A stretch of DNA of 52,535 nt from a virus: positions 1-52,535 of IMG/VR virus record IMGVR_UViG_3300020477_000037, one strand, 5' to 3'. Both the position numbers and the translations under genes were made by a program. A model generated the notes under the pieces. That model had not been told where the DNA came from. It did not search any database and was given only the letters and a program-made list of their open reading frames with translations. Below are positions 1 through 48,527 of this stretch, in pieces. Position 1 is the stretch's first letter. Each line of letters opens with the position of its first letter.

Positions 1-130
1 GCTGCTGAAATGGATGGTTGGATTGATGAGTTTAGATTTAGTAATGTAGATAGAGGCTGGACTGGTGCAACAATTACTGTTCCAACCTCTGCACATTCCT
101 TAGATTCGGATACACGATGCTTGTTGCATT
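1..130. repeat. Left copy of the 130-bp window-end overlap
   Basis: Matches 52406-52535 at 126 of 130 positions. The mismatches are at bases 2, 33, 51 and 54; three are synonymous and one changes Ala to Gly in the fibre frame. The clean in-frame continuation of the fibre gene argues for a circular or permuted molecule cut here rather than a true terminal repeat. A duplicated LamG domain with missing sequence between the copies is the main alternative. Confidence 0.8.
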
Positions 131-5295: not shown

Positions 5296-6777
5296 ATGCA
5301 GAAGTTAGGTTCTGATGCGGATATAAATATACAATATGGTCTTGAGCATTCAGAAACGCCTTGGCATCGTATTTTAATACAGCATAATCCGGGCAATGAA
5401 GATGGTCGCTATGCTCGTGAACAACTAGAAGATTATTTCATAGATAAGGCGGAAGAGACAGGATTGCTAAATGACGAGTCTGGGCATCTTATCCCAGAGA
5501 TTGCTGTAAAAGCTTCTCGTTTTGCATGGGCTGATTATGATACAGCTATGCGTGGTACTCCGTTAAAAAAATTATGGGATAGGTTTATAGAAGTATCACT
5601 TGCCTTTAAGCACCAGCATCTTGATTCTAATCAATATGATAATACAGTCCTCTCAACAAAAAGTGACTATCAGTATAAACCTTTACAAAAAGCTTCTGAA
5701 TTAGAGGTTGTACGAAAAGGGACTCACCACCAGATTGCTAGAGGTGATACTTTAACAAAGATAGCTCGTAAATATAATGTATCATTAGAATCATTAGTAG
5801 AGGCAAACCCAAAAGAAAAATCCCCTTGGCTTAAAAATATAAATCTCATTATGCCCGGTGGCTGGGTTCGTATCCCAGAACCAATGCCATCAGAAGAATA
5901 TACTGAGGCTCAATTGGGCTTAGTGGGGGTTCGTCCTCCAGAAACTGCAAAAGAAGCGTGGGCTAAGACTTTTCTAAAAGAAAGAAAAACGTATGTTAGT
6001 CCAGAACATCTTACGGTAGAATTAGATAGACTTTCTAATATGAAAGATAAGGATGATCTTAGTGCAATTCAGGGGTTTCTTGGGAAACCAAGCAAAGAAC
6101 GGTACTCTGACTTTGGTAAAACTTTTGGTTTTTCAATAAAATCTAAATCTACGAAACAAAAAACTTGGGAGAGAATTAAAGCTGTTTCTATTGTTGCAAA
6201 AAATAATAGAGATTTTTTTGATACTGCCGTTAGTCTTATGCGATCTCATGATCAAAACATTTTAAACGATAAAAATGTGTATCCTGTTATAACAGGTGGG
6301 AAGGAAGATGATTTCCATGCTATGTCAGGGCCACATCCAGTATCGAATAAAGGCCTTGCATTAGATTTTAGGATGCAGGGGAAGCTAGGTGGAGATAAAG
6401 ATAAAAATACAGTAAAGATGTTACATGATCTAGCAAAAAAAGACTTTGGACTGAAAGATATGGATTTATATAGTGGGTTAGACTTGTTCAAGCCTGTATT
6501 AAGAAGGGATGATATCAAAGAGGGAGAAATTAGTCCAACAACGATATTTAAAGGCTATGAAGGTAAAGAAGAAAAAAAATCAAAATACGGTTATAAATAT
6601 GATTTTTATTTCAAAAAAAATAACATCTTATATCATGTGATAACTGAGGGGGATCATGTTCATTTTGATAATATGCTCACAGAAGATTATAAATTAAATA
6701 AGTTTCATGTGCAAGGGATTTATCCAGAAGAGATAGTAGAATCAAGTGTACGCCCAAATGAAGAGGACGATAATTAA
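5296..6777 (+). CDS. LysM plus M15-type peptidase, virion-associated peptidoglycan hydrolase
   Basis: A 493-residue protein. Residues about 143-196 form a LysM module (HHQIARGDTLTKIARKYNVS, then LVEANP and a closing RIPEP), which binds peptidoglycan. The C-terminal 180 residues carry the hedgehog/DD-peptidase metal signature: H347 and D357 in a HxxxxxGxAxD motif and H454/H456 in GDHVHFD. These predict a zinc peptidase that cuts peptide cross-links. The H-D spacing is three residues longer than the usual SxHxxGxAxD. The first 140 residues are unassigned. Flanking internal virion genes suggest it travels in the particle and opens the wall during entry; since no other wall hydrolase is visible, it may also be the lysis enzyme. 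Confidence 0.75.
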   Translation: MQKLGSDADINIQYGLEHSETPWHRILIQHNPGNEDGRYAREQLEDYFIDKAEETGLLNDESGHLIPEIAVKASRFAWADYDTAMRGTPLKKLWDRFIEVSLAFKHQHLDSNQYDNTVLSTKSDYQYKPLQKASELEVVRKGTHHQIARGDTLTKIARKYNVSLESLVEANPKEKSPWLKNINLIMPGGWVRIPEPMPSEEYTEAQLGLVGVRPPETAKEAWAKTFLKERKTYVSPEHLTVELDRLSNMKDKDDLSAIQGFLGKPSKERYSDFGKTFGFSIKSKSTKQKTWERIKAVSIVAKNNRDFFDTAVSLMRSHDQNILNDKNVYPVITGGKEDDFHAMSGPHPVSNKGLALDFRMQGKLGGDKDKNTVKMLHDLAKKDFGLKDMDLYSGLDLFKPVLRRDDIKEGEISPTTIFKGYEGKEEKKSKYGYKYDFYFKKNNILYHVITEGDHVHFDNMLTEDYKLNKFHVQGIYPEEIVESSVRPNEEDDN

Positions 6778-9700
6778 TGCAACCATTTGCTGATTTTTTA
6801 AAAACTTTCAATCAAAGAGCTAGGAATATAGAGAAGGCTCGTGGTCAATCCCCTGATACTGTGGTTGGTGGTGACCCTGTGATGACAACTAAAGAATCTC
6901 TCATTACAGAGAAAGAAATCCCTAAGTTAAAAGATACTAAACCTAAAGTAAACACACCTAATGTAATGCCGGAGCTTACATTGTATCAACCCCCGGTAGA
7001 TGAAGATTTCTCTTATGACTTTCAAGGAGACATAGATTCTCCTAATGCAAATATTCCTCCTGAAACAGAAACGAAACCACTTATACAATGGGATAAAGAT
7101 ACAACACCATTATCAGAAAGATTTGATTGGAAGATTCCATTGGAAGATGTTGATGATCTGATTGCTATGGGTGCTGTAGGTTTTTGGAAAGATATAGTAG
7201 GTGGTATGGATGTGTATTCTAAGGAAGAGCTACAGGAAAGATTAAAAAATATCGCTGAAGATGCAAGTAGAAATATGGATACATCTGATATGCCCAGTAA
7301 TTTTTGGGAGTTAGGAAGTCTTACCAAAAAAGGTGTAAGAGGCATACTATCAATGTTAGGGCCAGCAGGTGATACAGATAGATTGCAAGAAAATGTTAAC
7401 GAATTCAAAGCTAACTTATCAAAGGAAACACAAGATGCTTTAGAAAGAAACTTTGTTACTCAAGATGCCGAAGGGAATTATCATGTTGGTAATGCCGATA
7501 TCAATACATTACTTGCTATGGTTGCGGTGCAATCCCCAAATATTATAGCAACATTAGGATCGGCTTATATTGGAGGTGCTTTATTAACAAGACTAGCTGG
7601 GATACCGGCAGCTTTAACTCCCAAAGCATTAGCATCTGTTAGAAAAACTGGTTACTTTACATCAGCTATTGGGACTCAATATACCGCAACGGCTCTTTCT
7701 ACATCCAGTCAAGTATATGAATCTTTATCTGAACAACCCGCACATTTATGGCAAGAAAGTCCACTCTATAATCGTGTTATGGATAAGTTATTAAATAATC
7801 CAGAGCATGGAGTTCCCACAGAAGACTATGACAAGCTACATGATTATGCGGTTGAATCAGTATCAAGACAATTAGCCTATGAAGCTGGGATTGTTAGTGG
7901 TGATATTTCTGCTTTAGCCATGACTCCGTTTGCCGGATGGCTTGGTAAAATTATGAGTGGCAAAAAAGTACAATATAATAAAGCATTCTTTAATAAAATA
8001 GGTGCTGTTAAAGAAGGGTTAAAGGGTACTGGTTTAGAAATGGTTGCGGAGGGGATGCAAGAAGGTTTTGCTGAAACTATGACAAGGAATTATTATCTCC
8101 GTGAGGGTGGTCAGCCTGTTAATATTTGGCATAATGTAATTAATGATACTATAACTGGCTCACTTGTATCTGGCCCAACCGCCCTTACTATGACTACTGC
8201 TGTAGCAATTACAGCACCAATACAAATAGATAAGATTAATAAAGAAATTACTAAAGGATTAGAGGGTGAAGGGTTGTTTGATGTTGGATCTACATTAGAT
8301 GAAACTGGACTATCTTATGTTATAAATCAAGACATTAATATAAGTGAGTCCGATAATAAAACATTGCAAGACTTGGTAGATAATGCTGATGAAGTTTTAG
8401 CTAGAGAGCCTATAGCAGAACAAGATGCTGATGGGTCTGATGACCCAAGCATGATAGCAATAGCCAATCAATATAATGTTGTTAGACAAAAAAGAGATGA
8501 TGCTCTAGCAGAACTTGCAAGAAGAACTGATGAAAGAGTTAATGAAACTGAAGAGGAATCAACACAAAGTGCTTTATTAGATCAGCCGGTTGTTCTTGAT
8601 CCGATTATTGTAGAAGCGGAAGACCCGTCTAAGTTTAAGGTTGAAGAAGATGAAGATGGTAAATTTTATATTAATAATCCAGTTACAAAAGAAAGAATGG
8701 AGAAACAATATAATAATTTAAACTCAGCCCAACAAGACGCAAACGAATTGAATAATTTAAATCAAAGGCCGGATGATTTGGAAACTCCTTTTACGGTTTC
8801 TTTTCAAAACCCAGAAACTAGGCAACGAATTGTGGATACTGCAAAAAAATATAAGTATCGACAGGGATCTGGTAGCAAACAAAGACGGGAGGCGTTTGAA
8901 GAGGATCTACAAGTTGGTGAGAACTGGGTTCCAAAAGCAGATGATGATAAGGATATTGTTAAAAGTGTTTACCTTATGTCCTATTATATACATCAACGGC
9001 AGAAATCAGAGAAGAAAAGGGATAAAAAAGTTTCGGATGAGATGCATAGTCTTTTAAATGAAGTTGGATATACGGATGAACAAATTGCTTTTATGGCAAA
9101 TGAAGCTAAACAAGCAATTATTAATAATAAAAAGATTAAATTTTATGATGTTAACCCTAATCTCACAAAAGAGCCGTATGAGTTTACTTGGAAGGGGATA
9201 GAAGATCCAAGTGGGGAGCCTGTCATTTCCACAGATAGTCCTCGTATTATAGATACTCCACAGAAAAAATCTATTTTTAATAGATTTAAAAAATTATGGA
9301 AGCGATTAGATGATAAGAGAGCTTCTGTAAAATTAACTACGGCTGAAAGAATCCGTGAATTATTATCTGAAGGGATTGGTATTAAATTTAAGCCCGGTTT
9401 TAAAACACAGCTAGATCCAACTAACCCAAGAAAGTGGAAGATAAAAAACCTTTCAGATGTTCAAGAGTTAATCCATTTATTTGGATCAGCTTTAAGTGGC
9501 TATCATAAGAGTTTACATACGGCTTATTATCGTGCTGTTAAGGCTGAAAAAATAAAAGGATTACATTTAGATCAAGCAATACTTGGTGAAAATATAGGTG
9601 AGTTTAAAACAGAAAACGAAAAAATTAATGCTATATGGGGGGAGTTTTTAAATCAATATATATATGACAGCCAGACGACAGCAAAGAATTATCCGGCACT

Positions 9701-12700
9701 ATATAAAGAGTTTGTTGCATTTTTAAACAAGAAACCAACCGTTGCTACTTGGGTATTTCAAATGCATTCTGCCGGTCAAAAATGGTATCACGCCTCTGAA
9801 TTAACAAAAGGCTTGTCTCTCATGGTAGGTGGTTTAGGTAAACAGGAAGAGGTGGATCGTAAAATAACAGAGGTTAATACTGTAACAAAAATGGATACAA
9901 TTATTAATAAGGCGTTTGATGCCGGTCATTCTTTAGGTTTGGCAAGAACTTGGATGACTAACGATGGTAAGAAGTTCAAGCTCCACGCACATGAAGATCC
10001 TCAGTTAGCTTACCAGTTAATGTCTGGTGAGGGTTCTAGTATTAGTTATGGATTATCAGGTAACTTTGTAACACCGTTTGATATGAGAATGCGTTTATCT
10101 TTAGATAAGTTAGCTTCACAAATGGGTATTACAACAACGAATTATAGTAGTAAAAAGGGAGCGGAAAGATTAGAAAGATTTTATAACACCATTTTAAAAG
10201 ACTCTGATGGGAAAGATATCACTAGAAGAAAGTCTAAAATGGTTGATAAGTTAGATGATGAGGGTAATGTAGTTAAGGATGAAGATGGGAATGTCATACA
10301 AGAAGTTGAATGGGAATGGGTACCTGTTAAGGCGGGGGATTTTAGAAGTTTAAAGTGGATTCTTTTGCCAATAGAAAATCTCAATGGAAGAAAATCTATA
10401 CTTGGTAAAGAATTAGGTGGTGGTAGATACACGGTTTCGGATGCCAACAAAGATAGTATCAATAAGGATATCACCTATTCAACTATGTTTAGTGCGTATG
10501 CATTAGCTAAAAGAGCCAAAACATTAAAGACTCGTGATAAAGAAAATTTATTTACAGATGAACAGATTAAGGCAATTATTGATGAAGTAGAAAAGCACAT
10601 GAAAAAAAATGACGTTGATGCATACAATGTGTTTGTTAAAGCACATAGAGAGCTAGTTGGGTTTGGTGAAATGTTAGCTGATTATGCAGTTGATGCCGGT
10701 TTAATTTCTCCAGAGGTAAGAGAAAGGTTTAGGATTGAAACTGATTATGTCCCATATATTAGGAAAAGAGATATGGATACTGGGGAGACTCTTCATTCTT
10801 ATAAAACTGGACGCTTAGATTTCTGGCAACCAAAAGCTATGAAAGGTGGGACTCATAGAATAATTGATCCGATTGAAAGTTTAATGAGAAATTATTCTAC
10901 TATAGTTCGATCTGCAAATCGCAACGATGTTATGGTTAAGTTATATGATATGTATCAATATATGTCAGCAAAAGATTTTCCTGAAAAAGGAGCCACAGAT
11001 CCAGTTAATGAATCAGATAATCCTATTACATTTCATGATGAACCGCAAAACAAAGAGGCAATATTTTTATCTAGAAATGAAATTATTCGTGAATTAGATA
11101 AAGACAATATATCTGTTACAGATGCAACTTTATCTAATAAAAATATGAAAGCTATAGAAAAAAAGCTATCTGAACTTGAGTGGGATGTTGGTATTGGTGA
11201 AGTTCTTGAATACAATATGATTGATGTTGATGAGGATGGAATACTTATACATTCTATTGCTAGCGAGAATACACAAAATAAATTTGTTATTTATAAACCT
11301 AATGAAAATTATCAGAATATTAAAGAAGAATATTCAGATAATAAGGTGAAGACAATTCATGATGGCAGGATGGCTCTACAGTCTTTCTTTAGGCCTTCGA
11401 TTGACTCAAGCACAACATATGTGTTTTATAAAAATGGAGAACGTAAGTTTCTAGAGATAAAAGATACAGAGGAAGGCAGGATACTGCAAGATACATTAGA
11501 CTTATTACAGCCGAAGGTTGTTAGGTTTGTTGATAATTGGATGGGTAAGCAAGCTGTAGATAATTTAAAAAGAGCCTACCAATTATTTGGTAAGTTACCA
11601 GCTAAGATCCAGCGTGAAATGATTGTTTTAAGTCCAGACTTTATTATAAGAAACTTTATGAGGGACACTATAGTTTCTGGATTCCAAAGTTCCGCTCGAT
11701 CAAAGCCTTGGCCTATCGTTAGTGCAATGCGTGGATTGAAAATATTCATGTTTGATAAAGAAGCAAGGAATATCATGAATAGTTTCGGTGGTAGTTTCGC
11801 AAGCCAATGGGAGAATCCTTTCGTTTGGTCACAACCTAAAAATGTTAAGGACTTACAAAAACTGATATCTCCAAGAATAATGCAAGATAAAGTTCTTTCC
11901 CCGGTTGCTCTTCTTAGGATGCTCGCTGATTTTGGTAAGATGACTGAGAGTTTATCTAGGATAAGAGAATTTAAAGTTGTCAAAGAAGAGTTGATGAAAG
12001 GTGATAATCTAGCTAGGCTTGGGGATAATGCATCTTTATTAGATAAAATTAAATTTAAAATATGGAGTCCCGTTCCACCTGAATATGCTCAGTTTATACA
12101 AACAGATGAAGATGGTGTTGCTTTTTCAATGAACGAGATAGATGCCACATTGTTGGCTGCTAAAGCTGCCAGAGAAGTATCGGTTGACTTTGGTAAAGGC
12201 GGTTCTAGTAGCTTTATAAGAGGACTAGCAGCTACTATTCCTTTTATGAATGCTAGAATGCAGGGTTGGCTTCAAGCTGGGAAGACATTAAAGAGAAATC
12301 CAGCTTTATTTATGACTCAGTTTTCTATGTATGCTTTAGCTTCTCTTTCAGCTTACGCTTTTACTAAAGAAGAAGGCAAATTAGATGATCGTAAAGAGTG
12401 GGAATTAGATATGTACCATTTTATTCCAGCTAGTATTATACCAGAAGAAGCTAGGGAAATGATGTCTAAGTTATTTCCTTGGGTATATGGCGAAAAAGAT
12501 GCTGATGTTAAGTATTTTAAAATACCAAGAGCTTTTGAGTGGGGGGCTATGACCCGTATTATAGAAGGTTTCTATGATTGGTTTCAAAAAGATTTAAAAC
12601 CGGCAGAGGCAAAAGCTTTATCTCATCTTATTGTTAGGACTATTGGTGATACTTTTTCGCATTCTGGTGCTTCTGGTCTTACACCTGCTTTATATCAAGC

Positions 12701-13619
12701 ATACAATAATTATAATAGTAATATAGATACATTTCTTGACAGGCCAATAGACCCAACAAAAAGTCAAGCTAAACCTATGGAAGATCGTGCCTATTCTACT
12801 ACACCATTATCTATTAGAGCATTAGCTAAAATGGTTGGGATGCCAGCAGCTAAACTTGCTTACTTAAACCATACATTCTTGAGTTCTTTTGGTCAGTTAT
12901 TAGCTTTAATCGCAGACAAAATGCTTTACGATAAGGAATATCCAGATAAACATTTTACATCTTATCCTATATTTAAAACTATCTTTTGGTCTGAGGATGT
13001 TAATTTAAATGCTTCTGTCGATAAAAGTTACAAAACCTTTCTTCATATTGCAAGGGTGAGGGAAACCGTAAAGAGTTTATTTGACGCACAAATATCTGGA
13101 GATAAAGATCTAGAAAAATCTGTAAATCCAAGAAGGCCAGAGTCTTATCATAGGGAACATTTAAAATATTTATATGAAGATGACCCATCTTTTAGTCCTT
13201 ACTTATCCTATTTAGCACAGAACAATGGCTATAGATTTAAAACTAGAATTGATCGTGCATATAAAGAAACAAGAAAGTTTTTTAACGATAAAAAGGAAGA
13301 GCGTAAACTTATTCAAACAATGGATAAACCTACAGAATACTTGCAAACATTAATAGAAGAAAGCTATAGTCAGCAAAACAAGAAAGCAGAAGAATTTATT
13401 AAGGTTGTGGAAAAGGAATTATCTACTGTTAAAGATTATGAAGAGACTGCATATAAAACAGATCCTTTTGTTAAGCCATTGATAGAAGGCGATATAGGCG
13501 ATATGGTTGCAAAAGTAGTTGAATCTATTTTAACCAAACCACGACAAATTTCTAATTTGATGAAGAGTGCGTTAGGTAATATGATTAGAGATACAACTAA
13601 CGAAGAAAACCAACCATGA
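6777..13619 (+). CDS. Giant internal virion / ejection protein (LPD38-type polyvalent protein), 2,280 aa
   Basis: The largest gene; its ATG overlaps the previous stop. The first 120 residues are Pro-rich and disordered-looking. Hydrophobic, Gly/Ala-rich segments near residues 245-285 and 455-485 could insert into membrane. About residues 1610-1900 carry motifs I recall from the large-polyvalent-protein domain LPD38 (VLSPDFIIRNFMRDTIVSGF; IPFMNARMQGWLQAGKTLKR), and an upstream YVPYIRKRD motif is typical of the same giant proteins. These proteins are packaged and delivered with the DNA. No catalytic motif was recognised. It is probably the functional equivalent of the largest T7 core protein, though not recognisably homologous. 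Confidence 0.65.
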   Translation: MQPFADFLKTFNQRARNIEKARGQSPDTVVGGDPVMTTKESLITEKEIPKLKDTKPKVNTPNVMPELTLYQPPVDEDFSYDFQGDIDSPNANIPPETETKPLIQWDKDTTPLSERFDWKIPLEDVDDLIAMGAVGFWKDIVGGMDVYSKEELQERLKNIAEDASRNMDTSDMPSNFWELGSLTKKGVRGILSMLGPAGDTDRLQENVNEFKANLSKETQDALERNFVTQDAEGNYHVGNADINTLLAMVAVQSPNIIATLGSAYIGGALLTRLAGIPAALTPKALASVRKTGYFTSAIGTQYTATALSTSSQVYESLSEQPAHLWQESPLYNRVMDKLLNNPEHGVPTEDYDKLHDYAVESVSRQLAYEAGIVSGDISALAMTPFAGWLGKIMSGKKVQYNKAFFNKIGAVKEGLKGTGLEMVAEGMQEGFAETMTRNYYLREGGQPVNIWHNVINDTITGSLVSGPTALTMTTAVAITAPIQIDKINKEITKGLEGEGLFDVGSTLDETGLSYVINQDINISESDNKTLQDLVDNADEVLAREPIAEQDADGSDDPSMIAIANQYNVVRQKRDDALAELARRTDERVNETEEESTQSALLDQPVVLDPIIVEAEDPSKFKVEEDEDGKFYINNPVTKERMEKQYNNLNSAQQDANELNNLNQRPDDLETPFTVSFQNPETRQRIVDTAKKYKYRQGSGSKQRREAFEEDLQVGENWVPKADDDKDIVKSVYLMSYYIHQRQKSEKKRDKKVSDEMHSLLNEVGYTDEQIAFMANEAKQAIINNKKIKFYDVNPNLTKEPYEFTWKGIEDPSGEPVISTDSPRIIDTPQKKSIFNRFKKLWKRLDDKRASVKLTTAERIRELLSEGIGIKFKPGFKTQLDPTNPRKWKIKNLSDVQELIHLFGSALSGYHKSLHTAYYRAVKAEKIKGLHLDQAILGENIGEFKTENEKINAIWGEFLNQYIYDSQTTAKNYPALYKEFVAFLNKKPTVATWVFQMHSAGQKWYHASELTKGLSLMVGGLGKQEEVDRKITEVNTVTKMDTIINKAFDAGHSLGLARTWMTNDGKKFKLHAHEDPQLAYQLMSGEGSSISYGLSGNFVTPFDMRMRLSLDKLASQMGITTTNYSSKKGAERLERFYNTILKDSDGKDITRRKSKMVDKLDDEGNVVKDEDGNVIQEVEWEWVPVKAGDFRSLKWILLPIENLNGRKSILGKELGGGRYTVSDANKDSINKDITYSTMFSAYALAKRAKTLKTRDKENLFTDEQIKAIIDEVEKHMKKNDVDAYNVFVKAHRELVGFGEMLADYAVDAGLISPEVRERFRIETDYVPYIRKRDMDTGETLHSYKTGRLDFWQPKAMKGGTHRIIDPIESLMRNYSTIVRSANRNDVMVKLYDMYQYMSAKDFPEKGATDPVNESDNPITFHDEPQNKEAIFLSRNEIIRELDKDNISVTDATLSNKNMKAIEKKLSELEWDVGIGEVLEYNMIDVDEDGILIHSIASENTQNKFVIYKPNENYQNIKEEYSDNKVKTIHDGRMALQSFFRPSIDSSTTYVFYKNGERKFLEIKDTEEGRILQDTLDLLQPKVVRFVDNWMGKQAVDNLKRAYQLFGKLPAKIQREMIVLSPDFIIRNFMRDTIVSGFQSSARSKPWPIVSAMRGLKIFMFDKEARNIMNSFGGSFASQWENPFVWSQPKNVKDLQKLISPRIMQDKVLSPVALLRMLADFGKMTESLSRIREFKVVKEELMKGDNLARLGDNASLLDKIKFKIWSPVPPEYAQFIQTDEDGVAFSMNEIDATLLAAKAAREVSVDFGKGGSSSFIRGLAATIPFMNARMQGWLQAGKTLKRNPALFMTQFSMYALASLSAYAFTKEEGKLDDRKEWELDMYHFIPASIIPEEAREMMSKLFPWVYGEKDADVKYFKIPRAFEWGAMTRIIEGFYDWFQKDLKPAEAKALSHLIVRTIGDTFSHSGASGLTPALYQAYNNYNSNIDTFLDRPIDPTKSQAKPMEDRAYSTTPLSIRALAKMVGMPAAKLAYLNHTFLSSFGQLLALIADKMLYDKEYPDKHFTSYPIFKTIFWSEDVNLNASVDKSYKTFLHIARVRETVKSLFDAQISGDKDLEKSVNPRRPESYHREHLKYLYEDDPSFSPYLSYLAQNNGYRFKTRIDRAYKETRKFFNDKKEERKLIQTMDKPTEYLQTLIEESYSQQNKKAEEFIKVVEKELSTVKDYEETAYKTDPFVKPLIEGDIGDMVAKVVESILTKPRQISNLMKSALGNMIRDTTNEENQP

Positions 13620-13630
13620 TTGGAGTATTA

Positions 13631-13858
13631 ATGAATAGCAATAAGTTTAAAGAATATATAACAAATAAAAATTCTTTAATAAAAAGCTATAAGAATTTTC
13701 TTAATGTTATAGCGGATTGTTATTGTCATGAAGATATTATCCCAGATGAAAAAATTCGGACACATCTCCATGTTATAAACACAATGCATTTAAATGCGAG
13801 ACAAGTGGATATAATGGGTGATATAATAAGGAGTGAATTAAAGCCGGAGTTAAACTGA
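13631..13858 (+). CDS. Small hypothetical protein before the terminase nuclease gene
   Basis: Seventy-five residues from ATG 13631, which has GGAG six bases upstream; an in-frame ATG at 13616 overlaps the giant gene's stop. It is helical and Asn/Lys-rich, with a C-H pair (DCYCHED) too sparse for a zinc-site call. Its TGA overlaps the ATG of the terminase nuclease gene by one base, so the two are probably translationally coupled. No family recognised. Confidence 0.5.
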   Translation: MNSNKFKEYITNKNSLIKSYKNFLNVIADCYCHEDIIPDEKIRTHLHVINTMHLNARQVDIMGDIIRSELKPELN

Positions 13859-14721
13859 TGCGTGGGATTGTAGATAAACATACTCCAGATGGAATTAGAA
13901 TTTGGCAAATACATTATACGGCAGATCCAGATAAAGACCCAGAGACAAAAGAAGGTGGAGAGTGGTTAGCTAATGAGCTAATGGGATATCCGGGTGGGAT
14001 GGCTTCTCCTAAATGGAAACAGGAGATGGAGGTTGACTTTGACTCTGTAAGTGGACAGCTATTATTCCCAAGGATGGAGGAGTGGAAAGATAAGCTGATG
14101 ATCCCACGATTCGATGTGCCGGATAGCTGGACTTTGTATGGCGGATTTGACTACGCTAGTCGTGGTGTATCCGCCTTCGTTGTTTTCGCCAAAGGAAAGA
14201 ATACAGATGACTATTATGCTATCTGGGAATTCTATGAAAAAAATAGCGGATATTTAAATACGATTAATGCTATCAAATCCTGTCCTTATTATGATAAGTT
14301 GGAATGGATTGTTGCAGACCCGCAGATATGGGCTTCTAATCAGCAAAAACAGGGGTCTGATGAGATGGTTAGTATCGCCCAATTGTTTGGGGAACAAGGG
14401 GTTCACTTCTTAAAAGGATCAAAGGGTGGTGACATTGCCGTAGGTGAAAGAGTTAATCAAGAGCTATGGAATTTTCAGGAGAATGAAGTTCCTAAGTTCA
14501 GGTTATTTGATAACTGCGATAAACTCTGGTGGGAGATGACAAGATTAAGATTTTCTGATTGGAGAAATTCTACGGCTCTCTCAAGGAACGCTAAAGAGTC
14601 TCTTATAGAAAAAGATAATCATGCTTGGGATTGCTTTAAGTACTTTCTGAGAATGATAGAAACAAATTGGATGAGTAGTAATATAGATTCATTTAATCCA
14701 TCTCAGCATATTATTGGATAG
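13858..14721 (+). CDS. Large terminase, nuclease half (separate gene)
   Basis: A 287-residue protein matching only the C-terminal half of a large terminase. It starts at the interdomain linker (IHYTADPDKDPET, GYPGGMASPKWKQEMEVDF) and continues into an RNase H-like nuclease with acidic residues D98 (GGFDYAS), D154 (VADPQ) and D263/D268 (KDNHAWDCFKYF). It would cut the concatemer during headful packaging. The ATPase half is a different gene 2 kb downstream (16764-17492), so the order is inverted relative to a normal terL. The start is a clean ATG coupled to the gene before it, and the frame is intact, so this looks like a working gene. The two halves add to 529 residues, a normal terL length. 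Confidence 0.85.
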   Translation: MRGIVDKHTPDGIRIWQIHYTADPDKDPETKEGGEWLANELMGYPGGMASPKWKQEMEVDFDSVSGQLLFPRMEEWKDKLMIPRFDVPDSWTLYGGFDYASRGVSAFVVFAKGKNTDDYYAIWEFYEKNSGYLNTINAIKSCPYYDKLEWIVADPQIWASNQQKQGSDEMVSIAQLFGEQGVHFLKGSKGGDIAVGERVNQELWNFQENEVPKFRLFDNCDKLWWEMTRLRFSDWRNSTALSRNAKESLIEKDNHAWDCFKYFLRMIETNWMSSNIDSFNPSQHIIG

Positions 14722-14733
14722 GAGATTTTATGA

Positions 14734-15066
14734 ATGGAAAATGTTTCGACTCTTATTTCAGACCTAGGAGTACCAATTACGGTAGCTTTAATGGCGGGGG
14801 CAGGTCTGTGGTTTACAGTAAAATGGCTGATGAATATTCTAATGAAGCGGTTAGACGAGTTGGAGCAGATCAGTCGAGACACCGCAGAAGAAACATTGAG
14901 ATCTATCCAAAAGGAAGAATCAGATTCAAAAGAAATACTGGTAAGATTAATAGATAGAATAAGGGCATTACAAACAGATGTTATTAGAATTGATACAATG
15001 TTTAGAATTAAATATAAGCTACCAATCGATGAACGCAGAATCTCTAGAAATCAGAAAGAGGATTAG
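14734..15066 (+). CDS. Holin-like membrane protein with coiled coil, 110 aa
   Basis: One hydrophobic segment (about residues 9-33, LGVPITVALMAGAGLWFTVK) is followed by a long charged helix (residues 36-85, RLDELEQISRDTAEETLRSI) and a basic tail. This topology is widespread in small phage proteins called holins or holin-like. AGGAG lies nine bases upstream; an out-of-frame ATG at 14730 uses the same site but gives an implausible basic peptide. The stop codon TAG overlaps the first two bases of the tRNA gene. Confidence 0.6.
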   Translation: MENVSTLISDLGVPITVALMAGAGLWFTVKWLMNILMKRLDELEQISRDTAEETLRSIQKEESDSKEILVRLIDRIRALQTDVIRIDTMFRIKYKLPIDERRISRNQKED

Positions 15067-15136
15067 CGGGGTAGAGCAATGGTAGCTCATCGGGTTCATT
15101 ACCCGAAGGTAGGGGGTTCGATTCCCTCCCCCGCAA
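15065..15136 (+). tRNA. tRNA-Met (CAT) with initiator-type identity elements
   Basis: A full cloverleaf can be drawn. Acceptor arm 15065-15071 pairs with 15129-15135, leaving 1:72 as an unpaired A:A. D stem GAGC/GCTC has A11:U24. The anticodon stem has three consecutive G:C pairs above loop TTCATTA, with anticodon CAT at 15097-15099. The T arm has loop TTCGATT, and the discriminator is A. An unpaired 1:72, A11:U24 and the GGG/CCC anticodon stem are the three classic hallmarks of bacterial initiator tRNA; an elongator Met tRNA lacks them. CCA is not encoded (CCT follows), so it needs host CCA addition. It sits between the two terminase halves. Confidence 0.9.
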
Positions 15137-15159
15137 CCTCTGATGAGTATAAAAATTGG

Positions 15160-15312
15160 GTGTATAAATATAATTCCTGTGATTGTTTAGCTAAAACAGA
15201 GTGTATATATGAAGGTTATTCATCGTGTAGAAGGGAATATCTTCAGGAAGAAATACCAGATTGGTATTGTGACCACCCATTTTATAAGGAACAATTAAAA
15301 AGATGGAAATAA
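15160..15312 (+). CDS. Small Cys-containing hypothetical protein, start uncertain
   Basis: The frame is open from inside the tRNA (ATG 15079) to 15312, but translation through the tRNA is unlikely to be meaningful, so I start at the first in-frame GTG after it (15160); no good ribosome site decides this. The resulting 50 residues contain five Cys (SCDCLAKTEC, YSSCRRE, WYCDHP), which could bind a metal. It overlaps the next gene by ten bases. Reality is moderately supported by the overlap and Cys pattern only. Confidence 0.35.
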   Translation: MYKYNSCDCLAKTECIYEGYSSCRREYLQEEIPDWYCDHPFYKEQLKRWK

Positions 15313-15896
15313 TTACTAAGGATGCGGGTGGTAATCAATTCATAGCTGTTACAGAATATAAACCATGCCGGAAATTAACAGCCTGTTTATATCTAGGTAA
15401 CGATGAGTTCCCTAGATCTTATGTAGTGGTAGCATCAGAAATACCACATACCAGACGGGCTATTATTAATGGGCAGGAGAGTGAGTCCCATGACCCTGAG
15501 TATGTAGTCTTTGATGAATTTTCAGGAAGGCTTTCTCCTTATTTTATAGATGAATTGAAGCGATTTCTAGGAAGGAATTATGTCGAGAAAGTTATCTGTA
15601 TATCTTCCAATGAAGACCTAAGAACAAAGATTAGAAGAGAATGTAATATAAAACCAATATATATCGAGAATAAGAAACGAGATGATTGTGCTGTTATATT
15701 GCAAGATTGGTTTAAGAGATTAAGAGATAATGGAGAACCCACATTAAAGATAAGAGAGAATTGTATAGAGGCTAGGAGTTTCAACTATTTACCAGCTAGG
15801 CTTTCTGTGGTATATTTACTTGAGTACTTTGAAAGACAAAGAGGTAAGAAAGTATTTCTTCCAAAGGTACAAAAATTAAGAGGCGGATATTCATAA
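15303..15896 (+). CDS. Hypothetical protein, 197 aa, between terminase halves
   Basis: A soluble, mixed alpha/beta protein with strand-like stretches (SYVVVASEI, YVVFDEFSG, EKVICISSN, KPIYIENKK) alternating with helices, suggesting a Rossmann-like or RNase H-like fold, but no motif is decisive. Residues 120-140 (KKRDDCAVILQDWFKRLRDN) resemble a helix following a strand in such folds. Its last base overlaps the ATG of the next small gene. I do not recognise a family. Its position in the packaging region makes a packaging accessory role possible, with no direct evidence. Confidence 0.6.
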   Translation: MEIITKDAGGNQFIAVTEYKPCRKLTACLYLGNDEFPRSYVVVASEIPHTRRAIINGQESESHDPEYVVFDEFSGRLSPYFIDELKRFLGRNYVEKVICISSNEDLRTKIRRECNIKPIYIENKKRDDCAVILQDWFKRLRDNGEPTLKIRENCIEARSFNYLPARLSVVYLLEYFERQRGKKVFLPKVQKLRGGYS

Positions 15897-16009
15897 TGAA
15901 ACTAATGGATGTTGTTAAGGTAGTATGTGTCATTGTTATTTTTTTTTCTTTAATGCTTCTTCTTACTCACTTTGTAGGGAGTCAAGTTAATTTCCAATCT
16001 CATGGGTAA
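15896..16009 (+). CDS. Single-span membrane peptide, 37 aa
   Basis: ATG 15896 overlaps the previous TAA (TAATG). The peptide is MKLMDVVKV plus a hydrophobic run (VCVIVIFFSLMLLLTHFVG) and a short polar tail. The coupled start, tight spacing to the next gene (five bases) and clear membrane segment support it as real. Function unknown; it could be a lysis or envelope peptide. Confidence 0.45.
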   Translation: MKLMDVVKVVCVIVIFFSLMLLLTHFVGSQVNFQSHG

Positions 16010-16014
16010 TAATA

Positions 16015-16305
16015 ATGGATGACATAGAAAATATAGTTGTAAAAATAAAAAGTGCTGAAGAAAAACTAGGTCAACTTGTTCCAAAAAACTTTTTCAGTTG
16101 GGAAATTTACATGGTTAATAATACTGAAGTATTGAGAGATGTTCTTGACCTCGTTAGATCGACAGCAAATATAATCAGGAAATGTGCTTGTACTGAATGT
16201 AATATTGTCTTTCAAAGTCACCACGCACTACAACGCCACATGACCTCCAATCATAAGGAATCGAGCGATGAAAGGGTTAACAGAAAAACAGGAAAAGTTC
16301 ATTGA
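16015..16305 (+). CDS. Protein with a classical C2H2 zinc finger, upstream of the small terminase
   Basis: Ninety-six residues. After a helical N-terminal domain, residues 59-80 (CTECNIVFQSHHALQRHMTS, then NH) fit the eukaryotic consensus exactly: C59-x2-C62-x3-F66-x5-L72-x2-H75-x4-H80, including both hydrophobic core positions. Such a finger binds zinc and usually DNA, RNA or protein. It overlaps the small terminase gene by 38 bases, so a role in recognising packaging DNA or regulating packaging genes is plausible but inferred. A prokaryotic Ros/MucR finger would have shorter C-H spacing. Confidence 0.7.
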   Translation: MDDIENIVVKIKSAEEKLGQLVPKNFFSWEIYMVNNTEVLRDVLDLVRSTANIIRKCACTECNIVFQSHHALQRHMTSNHKESSDERVNRKTGKVH

Positions 16306-16885
16306 TGAATACCTTAAAACCCCAGATGATAAGTCGGGTAGTGCTAAACGTGCGGGTTTTTCTCATCCAGAAGTTACGGCAAATAAATTACTACGCACCG
16401 ATAAAATTATTAAGGCTATAAAAGAAAAGCAGAGCAAGATATCAGAGGCAGAGGGGGTAACGGCAGATTGGTTAGCGAAATATTATAAAGCAATTATAGA
16501 AACACCAATTACAAACATATGTGATTGGGATAAAGTCAGCGGGTTAAATACAAGACCATCATCTCAGATAGACCAGATGTCTGCCTTTGCTATTAAGGAA
16601 GCATCGGAGGGAAGACCTAGAGAAGGTGAAGACCGTAAAGTTTTTCTAAAGATGGAAAGCAAATTAGAAGCAATGTCGGCCTTACGCAGTATGTTGGGAA
16701 TAGATGCACCGAAACGGCAAGAGGTTAAGGCTACTACTGAAACTTACAATATGACGGGTACTAATGAAGAAATCGCAAGCTCCCTCATTGGAACGCTTGA
16801 GAGCCTTATTACAAAATCCGATTATACAGGGGAAAATTTCGGAGTTACCTCATCAGGAAATCCTGAAAATAGAAAGACAAATTAG
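16268..16885 (+). CDS. Small terminase subunit
   Basis: A 205-residue protein beginning LTEKQEKFIDEYLKTPDDKS, then a helix-turn-helix (SAKRAGFSHPEVTANKLLRT, residues 24-43), the typical small-terminase DNA-binding start. The central region (SKISEAEGVTADWLAKYYKA) would be the oligomerisation part. It recognises the packaging site and recruits the large subunit. It overlaps the zinc-finger gene in front and, by 122 bases, the terminase ATPase gene behind. The disordered C-terminus (NMTGTNEEIASS onward) coincides with that overlap. Confidence 0.75.
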   Translation: MKGLTEKQEKFIDEYLKTPDDKSGSAKRAGFSHPEVTANKLLRTDKIIKAIKEKQSKISEAEGVTADWLAKYYKAIIETPITNICDWDKVSGLNTRPSSQIDQMSAFAIKEASEGRPREGEDRKVFLKMESKLEAMSALRSMLGIDAPKRQEVKATTETYNMTGTNEEIASSLIGTLESLITKSDYTGENFGVTSSGNPENRKTN

Positions 16886-17492
16886 CCTACTGTCTTTCAG
16901 GGAATCTCCTGAGAACTTTATATTTTCTGGGGTTCTATTAACTCGTGATGAAAGAGATCCTGACAGCCCAGTAAAAGCATTTTGTGATAAGGACTATTTA
17001 AAAGCTACACTAAAAGCGATTCATGAGTCAAAGATAATTTTTATCCCCAAGTCTAGACAGGTTCAATGCACTTGGTTGGTATGTGCTTATTGTTTATGGC
17101 TTGGGATGTTCCGTCCCCACCAAATGATATTCGTACAGAGTAAGAAGGAAGAAGACTCTGCCAACCTCGTATTCAACCAGAAGTGGACTAAAGGAAGAAT
17201 CTCTTTTATGTACCATCATCTTCCTGATTGGCTTAAAGTTGCCTGTCCGGCTGAAGGAGCTTACGCTAAACTCAATTTCGACAATGGCTCCATGATTTGG
17301 GGAGTGCCGGAGGGTGGAGATGTTGTCCGGCAATATACTGTCAGCCTACTCTTTGCTGATGAGGCAGGGTTTCAGCCTGAGTTTGAGAACGCCTACCAAA
17401 GTTGTAAACCTATGAGCCAAAAGATTGTAGCTGTAAGCTCTGCTTGCAGTAGTACTTACTTTGCACAGATTGTTCAATCTGCAAATGAGTAA
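16764..17492 (+). CDS. Large terminase, ATPase half (separate gene, ends before the nuclease domain)
   Basis: A 242-residue protein with only the N-terminal motor domain. It has an atypical Walker A (PKSRQVQCTW, 95-104; the usual G-K is Q-C, with the conserved KSRQ lysine kept), QSKKEEDSANLVF, Walker B SLLFADEAGF (194-203) and coupling motif AVSSACSS (223-230). It then stops exactly where the linker to the nuclease would begin; that linker opens the separate gene at 13858. It powers DNA translocation into the head through the portal. The assigned ATG lies deep in the small terminase gene and lacks a clear ribosome site, so the true start could be a later TTG. A terminator follows within 100 bases, so nothing is missing downstream. 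Confidence 0.85.
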   Translation: MKKSQAPSLERLRALLQNPIIQGKISELPHQEILKIERQISLLSFRESPENFIFSGVLLTRDERDPDSPVKAFCDKDYLKATLKAIHESKIIFIPKSRQVQCTWLVCAYCLWLGMFRPHQMIFVQSKKEEDSANLVFNQKWTKGRISFMYHHLPDWLKVACPAEGAYAKLNFDNGSMIWGVPEGGDVVRQYTVSLLFADEAGFQPEFENAYQSCKPMSQKIVAVSSACSSTYFAQIVQSANE

Positions 17493-36663: not shown

Positions 36664-38757
36664 ATGAGTGAAGAATATAGTCGGAATCAGAGATCAGCGG
36701 GAATTCCAAAAGATAAGGACGTAAAAGATCCTGATTTAAAACCTGACGTTCCTCACGTTCCGCCTATTGGGAAGAAGATTAATCAGGATGAGGTAGCTGA
36801 ATATATCCATAGGGAAGTGGATGATGCTTTATCTTTGAGGACAACTTGGCAAGCTGATCTGGAGAAATGGTATAAATCCTACCGTGGGATCGTGGATACG
36901 AAAGATTTCCCGTGGGAAGGTTGTTCTAATCTGTGGGTTCCGATTACAGCAACAATCATAGATACAATGCTTGCTCGATTAACCAATCCTATTTTTTCTG
37001 TCAAACCATTTGTGACTGTGAAGGGGGCATCCGCACCGAAGCGTAAAGCTGGAGATGATTTGGATGCCGGTAACCCCGCAGGGGCAAAGCAAGAGGGATT
37101 GTCCGATTACGAAAAAGCTCGTGATATAGAGCATATGCTCCACTTTGTTTTGAACAAACGGATTGATATTTATCCAATTGTTCTTGATTGGCTGAAAGAT
37201 GCTCTGATCTATGGGCGTGGAACAATAAAGATTGTTTGGAAAGAGAAGAAGCAGGTATTTAATCGAAGACTGACCTTTGAAGACTTAACGGAAAATATTG
37301 AAACTATCAGGGAGAAGATGGAGAAAGGTACAGCGGTTGATAGCCAGTTAACGCTATTACAGCAGATGGTTGGGTTACAGGAATCGACAGACTGGGTAGA
37401 TAATGATTTTGTAGAAGTGAAGACAGAAGAGATTGTGTATGACAACCCTGAATGGTTTTTCGTACCAGTAGAAGATTTTATTGTAGCACCTAGGGCTAAA
37501 GATATTCAGTCTGCAAGATTTGTTGCACACCGCTTTAGGTTAACTCTTGATGAACTCAGGAAACGAGCTAAAGCCGGGATATACCAGAACGTAGACCTTA
37601 TTGAGGCTGGGTACACACCTGATGACTATCGGTCTGATCCTTCTGGTACTAGGATGGAATATATACAGGAATTTCATGAAGGGCATCAAGGTGAAACTTA
37701 CGGCACTTACGATAAACTTGGATCAGAAGTTGAACTGATTGAGTGGCACGGTAAGTATGACATCGACAACGATGGATTCATGGAAGACATTATTGCAACC
37801 TATGCTGTGGATCAGAAGATCTTGCTATCAGTCATGGAGAATCCCTATCTTCATGGACAGCGTCCATTTGCTGAAATAAAACCATTTCCAATGGAAGGCA
37901 GGTTTGAAGCTCAAGGTGTGCCTGAATTGATCTATGATCTTCAGCTTGAGTTGAATGACTTGCACAACCAGCGAATAGACAATGGCACGATCACTAATGC
38001 TGTTATGCTTTGGGTTGACCCAGCCTCAGACGTAGACCCAGATATACATAAGGTATTCCCCGGTGCCATGTTCCCTGCTAGGAATAATGAAATCGGTGTA
38101 CTCAGAACTCCAGATGTCAAGTTTAGTGCTTTCAGGGAAGAAGAACTAATCAGGCGTATGATACAAGATAGGCTTGGTATTACGGATATACAGATAGGTT
38201 CAGCTAATCCACAGTTAGCAAACAGGACTGCTACCGGCATTATGACAGTTGCACAGGAAGAAGCTCAACGATTAGAGCATATCTTTCGTAACGTACAAAG
38301 TGGTGTTAACAATGCAGTACACCAGACCTTCGGATTGATGCAACAATTTGGTAGTGATGAAATATTTTACCGGGTGGTAGAGAATGCAACTGAAACATTC
38401 AAGACTTTAGATGCTAGGGAAATACAGGGAAGATATGATTTAGAGATATCTGCAAATAGTATTAATGCAAATCGTTTGATTGAGCTACAGGAAATGAGGG
38501 AGAAGCTCCAGTTGGCTGGTCAGTTTGGTGTAAACTTCTTGAATCCGATTCCATTGCTTCGTGAGTTCCTAGAGAAGATGGGAACGAAGAATGTTGACGA
38601 TATAGTTAAATCAGTACCAGAGGCATTTATGGCTATGCTACAGGAAAATCCTGAAATGGCACAGGCATTAATGCAGCAACTACAGGGTATGGCTGGGCAA
38701 CAACCCCCTCAACAACAAGGCAATGTAGCACCTATGCCACAAAGAGGAGTAGCTTAA
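36664..38757 (+). CDS. Portal protein
   Basis: A 697-residue protein with portal hallmarks: N-terminal region (ADLEKWYKSYRGIVDTKDFP, WEGCSNLWVPITATIIDTML), DWLKDALIYGRGTIKIVW crown/wing strand, PVEDFIVAP, then a long helical stem (VPELIYDLQLELNDLHNQRI), and GSANPQLANRTATGIMTVAQ; a Gln-rich barrel end closes it. It forms the twelve-subunit channel through which the two terminase proteins would pump DNA. Followed by scaffold and capsid genes in the usual order. Length suits podovirus portals. Confidence 0.8.
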   Translation: MSEEYSRNQRSAGIPKDKDVKDPDLKPDVPHVPPIGKKINQDEVAEYIHREVDDALSLRTTWQADLEKWYKSYRGIVDTKDFPWEGCSNLWVPITATIIDTMLARLTNPIFSVKPFVTVKGASAPKRKAGDDLDAGNPAGAKQEGLSDYEKARDIEHMLHFVLNKRIDIYPIVLDWLKDALIYGRGTIKIVWKEKKQVFNRRLTFEDLTENIETIREKMEKGTAVDSQLTLLQQMVGLQESTDWVDNDFVEVKTEEIVYDNPEWFFVPVEDFIVAPRAKDIQSARFVAHRFRLTLDELRKRAKAGIYQNVDLIEAGYTPDDYRSDPSGTRMEYIQEFHEGHQGETYGTYDKLGSEVELIEWHGKYDIDNDGFMEDIIATYAVDQKILLSVMENPYLHGQRPFAEIKPFPMEGRFEAQGVPELIYDLQLELNDLHNQRIDNGTITNAVMLWVDPASDVDPDIHKVFPGAMFPARNNEIGVLRTPDVKFSAFREEELIRRMIQDRLGITDIQIGSANPQLANRTATGIMTVAQEEAQRLEHIFRNVQSGVNNAVHQTFGLMQQFGSDEIFYRVVENATETFKTLDAREIQGRYDLEISANSINANRLIELQEMREKLQLAGQFGVNFLNPIPLLREFLEKMGTKNVDDIVKSVPEAFMAMLQENPEMAQALMQQLQGMAGQQPPQQQGNVAPMPQRGVA

Positions 38758-46199: not shown

Positions 46200-48527
46200 A
46201 TGGCAATGTCTAGTAAAACATTTGTAGCAAATAAGAGGGGGTTGTTTGATATAGCTCAATCTGAAGGTTTGATTGGTGATGATTTCGCATTAGAGCTTCA
46301 AAACGCCCGTATTTCTATCAACGGTGAAGTTCGTAAGAGAAGGGGAAGAGTGAAGTTAAATACAACTGCTTTCTCCGGCACACCTGATATTAATACTGTT
46401 ACAGTCTTTGACGGTGATTTTGTCCCATCTTATGAAATCATAGCAACCGCTGGGGAAGATATAAGGAAGTATAATAGTTCTACTAATGCATTTGATTTAA
46501 TAGAGACTGGATATACTAGTGGTAAACGATTTAGTACAACTCATTTTAGGGGTAATTTAATTCTAACGAATGGAGAGGAGTTGCCGTTTAAGTATGGTTA
46601 TGTTGGTAAACCAGCACAACCTACTACCGGCACGAGTGGCAGTGGTTCGTTGTCTGCAAGGACATATTTTGTAAAAACATCGTATGTATCGTCACAGATT
46701 GATCAAAGTCATATTACGAATAGTGGCTCTGATAATATCGGTGATACTTCATCTAATCTTTTTCGCTCTCAAGTGTTTCAGGCTGGGACTACATCCTGTA
46801 TTAATCGAGTGAAGCTTCGATTAAAACGTGTGGGTAATCCTACTGATAACATACAAGTTTCCGTTAGAGCTACGGATGGTAGCGGGGTTCCCACAGGTTC
46901 AGACTTAACCAATCAAGTTTCAGTTGCGATATCTACTATCAAGACTGAATATCAATTTATTGAATTTGCTTTTAGTACTTATGCTTCATTAACTTCTGGT
47001 ACTAAATACGCAATTATTATAACTCGTAGCGGTTCGGCAGACTCCTCTAATTATATCCAAATTGCTAAAGATACTGCCGGTGGCTATTCGGATGGGGCGG
47101 TATATTCATCGAGTGCCGGTTCATCTTGGACTGAGACCACTTCAACGGATTTTAATTTTAATACCTATCTGTTATCTGGAGAATCTAAACCAAGCAATCA
47201 GAAGGAACAAGCTTTATCTGCAAGCAATGTTTTAACAGTAACGGCTCCAATAGCTACGGACGGTGCGGTTGCTTATAATGTTTATGTGTCGGAAACATCT
47301 AATGCTGAAGTTAAACAGACCGAAAAGCCTGTAGCATTAGGGTCTAATTTCACAGAACCTGACAGCGGTCTGGTTAGTTTAGGGGCATTACCAACTCTTT
47401 ATACAAGTTGGTATACTAAGGAATTAGATGCGGTAACGGATTATGGTAAAATAGTATTTAGTATGAATGGCAGGATTTGGTTTGCCGGATTTGAAGATGA
47501 ACCATTAAAGATCCTTGGGTCTGCCCTAGATAAAGATAATGATTATACAACTGCAAACGATTCGGTTGTTCTGGATTTGGGTAGCCATGTAACTCGTGGT
47601 GATGAAATTGTCGCTCTGAATCGTTTTGGTTTAACGAATAATCTTATTATTGCATTAAAGAATCATTTCATTCGTTGGAATGTACCGGCAGAATTTAACA
47701 GTATTGTTGTAAGTGATGTATTATTTAATGTTGGGGCAATGTCACAGAGATGTGTAACGAGCGTACCTTTTGGAAGATCTGACATATTTATGCTGGGCCA
47801 AGAGGGTTTAAGCTCTATTAATGTTGAGGTTATAACGGGTGGTCTTGGGGCTAAAAAACTCACTAAAAATATTGAAGATAGGTTAAAGCCTATTTTAGTT
47901 GGAGTTACAGATCAATCAGAAGTAAATGCGATTAATTTTAAATTTGATAGAGAATATATTGTTTCGGTTCCATCTGTTAGCAAGAGGTTTATTTTTGATT
48001 ATGAATTAAAAGCGTGGTCTGAAGATAGAAATATTAAGGTTAATGATATGACTGTTACCCCAGATGGATTTCTTTTATCTGCCGGAGATGATGGGTTTGT
48101 TTACAGGGAATATCAAACATCTGCTCGTGTGAATGTATATGGGGATAGTAACAATGATTCTGATGTTTCTTTTAGGTGGGACACCCCTTGGTTAACTGTG
48201 GATAGAGCCGATGTAAAGAAAGCCTTTAAGTACTTTCAATTTAAAGGTACAGGTTCAGGAACTTTCAAGTTGGATGTTTTCTATGATTATGATACAACTG
48301 CTTACAAGAGTATCTATTTACAGTCTGATCCGTCCTTATGGGATGAATCAACGTCTGAATGGGATTCCACTTATTGGGATTTCCCAGATATCAACAAGGT
48401 TTTAATCCCGCTTATAGGACGTGGAAAAGTGGTTAAATTTTCTTTTACCGCAACACACCGAGCCGGATTAAGTATATCTTACTACGGTGTTAAATATGTT
48501 AAAAGCGGATTTAGAGGAAACGACTAA
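46200..48527 (+). CDS. Tail nozzle / stabilisation protein with an inserted beta-sandwich domain
   Basis: A 775-residue, beta-rich protein. It opens like T7 gp12-type and P22 gp10-type nozzle proteins (ALELQNARISINGEVRKRRG) and ends with propeller-like strands (IFMLGQEGLSSINVEV, FIFDYELKAWSEDRNI, GDDGFVYREY). Residues about 180-325 are an insertion (FRSQVFQAGTTSCINRVKLR, TSGTKYAIIITRSGS) of the choice-of-anchor-R / carbohydrate-binding-like type, also present in the fibre. It would form the tail nozzle and may contact the cell surface. The stop overlaps the fibre's ATG. Confidence 0.7.
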   Translation: MAMSSKTFVANKRGLFDIAQSEGLIGDDFALELQNARISINGEVRKRRGRVKLNTTAFSGTPDINTVTVFDGDFVPSYEIIATAGEDIRKYNSSTNAFDLIETGYTSGKRFSTTHFRGNLILTNGEELPFKYGYVGKPAQPTTGTSGSGSLSARTYFVKTSYVSSQIDQSHITNSGSDNIGDTSSNLFRSQVFQAGTTSCINRVKLRLKRVGNPTDNIQVSVRATDGSGVPTGSDLTNQVSVAISTIKTEYQFIEFAFSTYASLTSGTKYAIIITRSGSADSSNYIQIAKDTAGGYSDGAVYSSSAGSSWTETTSTDFNFNTYLLSGESKPSNQKEQALSASNVLTVTAPIATDGAVAYNVYVSETSNAEVKQTEKPVALGSNFTEPDSGLVSLGALPTLYTSWYTKELDAVTDYGKIVFSMNGRIWFAGFEDEPLKILGSALDKDNDYTTANDSVVLDLGSHVTRGDEIVALNRFGLTNNLIIALKNHFIRWNVPAEFNSIVVSDVLFNVGAMSQRCVTSVPFGRSDIFMLGQEGLSSINVEVITGGLGAKKLTKNIEDRLKPILVGVTDQSEVNAINFKFDREYIVSVPSVSKRFIFDYELKAWSEDRNIKVNDMTVTPDGFLLSAGDDGFVYREYQTSARVNVYGDSNNDSDVSFRWDTPWLTVDRADVKKAFKYFQFKGTGSGTFKLDVFYDYDTTAYKSIYLQSDPSLWDESTSEWDSTYWDFPDINKVLIPLIGRGKVVKFSFTATHRAGLSISYYGVKYVKSGFRGND

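What the first reader, a model, noticed from the sequence alone, without database searches (positions are those of the whole stretch)
13858..17492. Large terminase split into two genes in inverted order
The nuclease half (13858-14721, acidic residues D98/D154/D263) is encoded about 2 kb upstream of the ATPase half (16764-17492). Their junction is exact: one ends after the coupling motif, the other begins at the IHYTADPDKDPE linker, and together they make 529 residues. Split terL genes interrupted by introns or homing genes keep N-then-C order; here the order is swapped with seven features (TerS, a tRNA, a zinc-finger gene and others) between. Both frames are intact, so a two-protein motor/nuclease terminase is implied, possibly from circular permutation or duplication with reciprocal loss.
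Basis: partly seen in the sequence, partly recalled or inferred. Interest (0 to 1): 0.85.

Follow-up and report, generated by a model that had tools for sequence, protein, structure and literature searches.

The report
Two-gene phage packaging motor, order swapped
A group of uncultured phages makes its DNA-packaging enzyme (the large terminase, normally one protein) as two separate proteins whose genes lie in reversed order with other genes between them, so the motor must be put together from two chains.

Summary
terL-C (13858-14721, 287 aa) lies 2 kb upstream of terL-N (16764-17492, 242 aa); both frames are intact and no other TerL was found by sequence. It is not a misassembly: 33 other IMG/VR contigs from about 30 metagenomes have the same order, and the swapped rows form one clade in the N, C and joint trees. 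Both halves keep their catalytic residues, are under strong purifying selection (dN/dS 0.02-0.08) and are inherited together. The split is wider than the swap: many related uncultured phages have terL cut at the same place in N-then-C order; others have one-piece terL. The cut is in a variable loop inside the ATPase domain just after motif III, not at the ATPase/nuclease boundary, so the "nuclease half" also carries the end of the ATPase fold. No intron, intein or homing gene fits the breakpoints. A new point: the 197-aa gene between the halves (15303-15896) was found only in the swapped clade and is predicted to have the RNase H fold of a TerL nuclease domain. Best reading: a two-chain terminase assembled in trans. 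Function is inferred, not shown; how the swap arose is unresolved.

The parts
13858..14721 (+). terL-C: end of the ATPase domain (about residues 1-85) plus RNase H-fold nuclease domain with D98, D154, H255, D258
   Evidence: (AlphaFold pLDDT 84; Foldseek to D6E, P22, SPP1, G20c and T4 TerL)
15303..15896 (+). 197-aa protein predicted to have the RNase H fold of a TerL nuclease domain; found only in the swapped clade, between terL-C and terS/terL-N; two of its three candidate acidic positions are lost here (N103, L167)
16268..16885 (+). terS, terminase small subunit (Terminase_2); overlaps the start of terL-N
16764..17492 (+). terL-N: ATPase core with deviant Walker A (PKSRQ, from residue 95), Walker B (FADEAG, from 197) and motif III (SSA, from 225); ends 15 residues after motif III
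13616..13858 (+). 80-aa ORF whose stop overlaps the terL-C start (TGATG), leaving no room for an intron or intein piece there
14734..15066 (+). 110-aa ORF between the halves (phrog_18771, unknown function)
15065..15138 (+). tRNA-Met (CAT) between the halves
16015..16305 (+). 96-aa protein with a C2H2-like zinc finger (below Pfam's curated cut-off); L008 has a gene with a similar Cys/His pattern at the same place
36664..38757 (+). portal protein: here terS-terL-N sits far from portal, unlike L089 of the sister group, where terS-N-C is followed by a portal-sized ORF

Best explanation
The phage makes its large terminase as two chains that assemble without a covalent link. terL-N supplies the nucleotide-binding core (Walker A, Walker B, motif III). 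terL-C supplies the last part of the same ATPase domain, the linker and the RNase H-fold nuclease. The chains pair through the ATPase fold and the N/C pairs act on the portal as one-chain TerL subunits would, packaging and cutting DNA. History: terL was cut in a variable loop after motif III, in N-then-C order; the halves drifted apart in several lineages, and in the ancestor of this clade terL-C came to lie upstream of terS-terL-N, next to an extra TerL-nuclease-like gene. Shown: order, intact frames, conservation, monophyly, catalytic residues, purifying selection, breakpoint. Inferred: association of the chains, ring assembly, packaging activity, order of the historical steps.
For: Same order in 33 other contigs, 21 distinct rows with both halves. 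Swapped rows form one clade: joint tree SH-aLRT 100, N tree 99/98, C tree 98. N and C distances correlate at r = 0.96; the best of 1999 permutations reached 0.78. dN/dS 0.016-0.081 in both halves. Walker B, SSA and the D98/D154/H255/D258 positions are conserved. The breakpoint lies in a loop of variable length in one-piece relatives. Alignment to T4 gp17 puts the end of terL-N near gp17 residue 302, about 60 residues before the nuclease domain (domain border from general knowledge). No second TerL in the record by sequence. The near-identical contig L007 supports the left junction (96% over 13599-14555).
Against: No biochemical, structural or expression data. The complex could not be modelled, since the tools fold single chains only. 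The right junction (15-17.5 kb) has no near-identical second assembly, only relatives at 57% identity or less.
Confidence: 0.82

Rival explanations
1. The halves are joined after transcription or translation, by a trans-splicing intron or a split intein, giving one TerL chain.
For: It would restore a normal TerL; an intein (PMC3670811) and group I introns (PMC12363816) in phage terL genes are known.
Against: No Rfam intron in the window, L008 or nine loci with N and C apart. No extra sequence at either breakpoint: terL-N ends 15 residues after motif III and terL-C begins 17 residues before IHYTADPD. Neighbouring genes overlap the breakpoints (window TGATG; in L060 the upstream ORF ends inside the terL-C start and the convergent gene overlaps the terL-N stop).
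Confidence: 0.04
2. terL-N and terL-C work apart: terL-N is the packaging motor on its own and terL-C is a free nuclease.
For: The nuclease domain is complete in terL-C; in several N-first relatives the halves are separated by unrelated genes.
Against: The cut lies inside the ATPase domain, so terL-N alone lacks the end of the fold, and that end (IHYTADPDK) is among the most conserved parts of terL-C.
Confidence: 0.09
3. One or both halves are decaying remnants and another enzyme packages DNA.
For: Split genes often decay; a further TerL-nuclease-like gene (15303-15896) is present.
Against: dN/dS near 0.05 in both halves, catalytic residues kept, 21 distinct rows, no second TerL ATPase found in the record.
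Confidence: 0.03
4. The swapped order is an assembly artefact.
For: Single metagenomic record; the right junction has no near-identical second assembly.
Against: Same order in 33 other contigs from about 30 data sets, with coding overlaps at the junctions.
Confidence: 0.01

Closest known systems
One-chain large terminase (T4 gp17, D6E, P22, SPP1 G2P)
   Same: Same ATPase motifs and RNase H nuclease fold; N half matches gp17 by sequence, C half matches all four by fold
   Different: One polypeptide there; here two, cut inside the ATPase domain, with genes in reverse order
terL genes broken by group I introns (Jug phages, PMC12363816)
   Same: One TerL encoded in more than one ORF
   Different: Those pieces are spliced at RNA level; here no intron, no homing gene at the breakpoint, and reversed order
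Split terL in N-then-C order in uncultured relatives (L015, L089, L091, L022, L026 and others; this work)
   Same: Same breakpoint after motif III, two intact ORFs
   Different: C follows N, touching or with ordinary genes between; no 15303-type gene found there
Split DNA polymerase A of MEP401-type phages (PMC10580990)
   Same: An essential phage enzyme made by two ORFs with a small gene between, conserved in a lineage
   Different: Different enzyme; order not reversed

Membership tests
Terminase large subunit (TerL) | ATPase motifs (Walker A, Walker B, motif III) | tested here: met
   PKSRQ (deviant Walker A shared by the related family), FADEAG, SSA in terL-N
Terminase large subunit (TerL) | RNase H-fold nuclease with acidic triad | tested here: met
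   D98, D154, D258; Foldseek to D6E, P22, SPP1, G20c TerL
Terminase large subunit (TerL) | ATPase and nuclease in one polypeptide | tested here: not met
   Two ORFs 2 kb apart in reverse order
Terminase large subunit (TerL) | Packages and cuts phage DNA | not testable with these tools
   Needs biochemistry
Intron- or homing-gene-split terL | Intron RNA or homing endonuclease at the breakpoint | tested here: not met
   Rfam negative. In N-first relatives the genes between N and C are assorted and none looked homing-like by eye. L008 alone has an HNH gene overlapping the terL-N end
Split intein | Intein halves at the end of N and start of C | tested here: not met
   No extra sequence at either end
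TerL nuclease-like fold (15303-15896) | RNase H fold closest to TerL nuclease domains | tested here: met
   AlphaFold pLDDT 81.8; the only PDB hit at E<=0.001 is a TerL (8dgc, 1.4e-5); most named viral hits at E<=0.001 are terminases. TM-scores are modest and the profile-profile test was negative
TerL nuclease-like fold (15303-15896) | Intact acidic triad | tested here: inconclusive
   D34 invariant; D103 and D/E167 in most members, but N and L in the window, N and V in L008. Active-site positions assigned by eye

The most novel reading that the evidence does not exclude
A multi-chain terminase in which the ATPase domain is completed in trans and an extra TerL-nuclease-like protein takes part, so that the nuclease chain can be exchanged, delayed or regulated apart from the motor.
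Probability: 0.25. Interest if true: 0.8.

Novelty: new variant of a known kind. Interest (0 to 1): 0.62.

Why it matters
In models of T4 gp17 (general knowledge) the motor works by movement between covalently linked ATPase and nuclease domains. A natural terminase cut inside the ATPase domain, and kept in many lineages, gives a direct test of whether that link is needed, and an ATPase that could be switched on by adding its second chain. It also means that surveys and trees based on TerL may miss or mis-score such phages, because each half falls into a separate short family.

Tried and rejected
Rfam search for introns: none (one search exceeded a size limit). Second TerL in six frames: none. 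HHalign of the 15303 family with terL-C: not significant, although the fold search is clear. PDB sequence search with terL-C: no match. One genome-collection scan for hosts: two distant matches in metagenome-assembled genomes, no host for this clade. Cultured or complete phages near the C half (Rollin, phiKX2, HTVC033P, Hodr, Mwe-JY08, two Manatee Spring phages) have a single annotated ORF there. Literature searches found no terL in reverse order; only open papers are held, so this is weak. The deviant Walker A was considered as a sign of decay and rejected: one-piece relatives share it. tRNA, zinc finger and 110-aa ORF could not be tied to the mechanism.

Full report
Observation. The two ORFs are as described: 13858-14721 (287 aa) and 16764-17492 (242 aa), same strand, both open, with TerS and tRNA-Met between them. 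The first is the C part of a TerL, the second the N part. The window is a whole IMG/VR record of 52,535 bp. Its ends carry a 128-bp near-repeat with three mismatches, which suggests, but does not prove, that the genome is complete. No further TerL was found by sequence in any frame. One detail is wrong: the third catalytic aspartate is D258, residue 263 being F.

Not an artefact. L007 is 96% identical over 13599-14555 and supports the left junction. L008, only 54-56% identical at protein level, has the same order: C, 15303-type gene, a gene with a similar Cys/His pattern, TerS, N. Profile searches gave 33 other contigs from about 30 metagenome data sets with C upstream of N, 1.3-2.3 kb apart. 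The count is 30 contigs, some with one half truncated, plus L130, L136 and L137. Some are near-copies; 21 distinct rows with both halves remain, the window included.

History. In a tree of joined N+C sequences all 27 swapped rows with both halves long enough form one clade (SH-aLRT 100). The N tree (99/98) and the C tree (98, quick method) agree. N and C distances correlate at r = 0.96, against at most 0.78 in 1999 permutations, so the halves are inherited together. In the joint tree the sister group (L015, L089, L091; support for the pairing 92) is split at the same place but in N-then-C order. L089 reads TerS-sized ORF, N, C and then a portal-sized ORF (judged by length and position only). 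More distant relatives are one-piece, or split with N first; the tree needs several changes between these states and does not give their direction. The split therefore most likely came first and the swap later. Where N and C are apart in N-first relatives, the genes between are assorted and none looked like a homing endonuclease (read by eye; three such ORFs had no Pfam match).

Breakpoint. Aligned to one-piece relatives, the cut falls in a stretch of variable length between motif III and the conserved G-[IMV] that precedes IHYTADPD. Against T4 gp17 the N half ends near residue 302. From general knowledge the gp17 nuclease domain starts near residue 360, so the C chain begins inside the ATPase domain. 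The AlphaFold model of terL-C (pLDDT 84) matches solved terminases of D6E, P22, SPP1, G20c and T4. A clean division into motor and nuclease is therefore unlikely: the two chains should have to meet for the ATPase to be complete. That last step is inference.

Function kept. Walker B, motif III and the nuclease triad are conserved in the swapped clade. dN/dS is 0.016-0.081 for both halves in the pairs where it could be measured; some pairs were saturated. The odd Walker A is a feature of the related family, one-piece members included.

Splicing. There is no room and no sequence for an intron or intein: in the window the upstream ORF's stop overlaps the terL-C start, and in L060 both breakpoints overlap neighbouring genes. 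Rfam was negative. In L015 and L031, both N-first, the halves are in one frame separated by a single TAG, so amber readthrough could give a full-length chain there; this cannot apply to the swapped clade.

The gene in between. The 197-aa product of 15303-15896 has relatives in 38 loci, and those with enough flank carry swapped terL parts. Its model (pLDDT 81.8) finds a TerL as the only PDB match at E<=0.001 (8dgc, 1.4e-5), the SPP1 nuclease domain at 4.5e-3, and mostly terminases among named viral matches at E<=0.001. TM-scores are modest (0.35-0.62 by query length among the viral matches at E<=0.001) and profile comparison with terL-C was not significant, so descent from terL-C is not shown. 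Most members keep three acidic positions (34, 103, 167); the window and L008 keep one. It may be a non-catalytic partner of the terminase or a second nuclease; this is open. It is under purifying selection too (dN/dS about 0.07-0.2 where measurable).

Novelty. terL broken by introns (PMC12363816) or carrying an intein (PMC3670811) is known, and N-first terL pairs are known to me from phage annotation practice (general knowledge, not tested). I found no report of reversed order, or of a lasting terminase cut inside the ATPase domain, but only open papers were searchable. I rate it a new variant of a known kind.

Noticed in passing
window 3-130 and 52408-52535: 128-bp direct repeat with 3 mismatches at the two ends; the record may be a complete circular or terminally redundant genome.
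   Followed up: partly
window 48511-49406, - strand: Imperfect repeats with about 90-bp spacing inside a 294-aa ORF; nature not examined.
   Followed up: no
L015 about 660; L031 about 7970: terL-N and terL-C in one frame separated by a single TAG directly before ATG; amber readthrough would give a one-piece TerL.
   Followed up: partly
L008 4369-4650, - strand: HNH endonuclease gene overlapping the 3' end of terL-N; not seen at this place in the other swapped loci examined.
   Followed up: partly
L022, L026, L027, L029, L030, L108 and others: Many uncultured phages have terL split after motif III in N-then-C order, some with stop/start overlap (TAATG); a wider class of two-ORF terminases that deserves its own survey.
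   Followed up: partly
window 6777-13619: 2280-aa ORF (weak match to phrog_18222, unknown function), probably a large virion protein, just upstream of the packaging genes.
   Followed up: no
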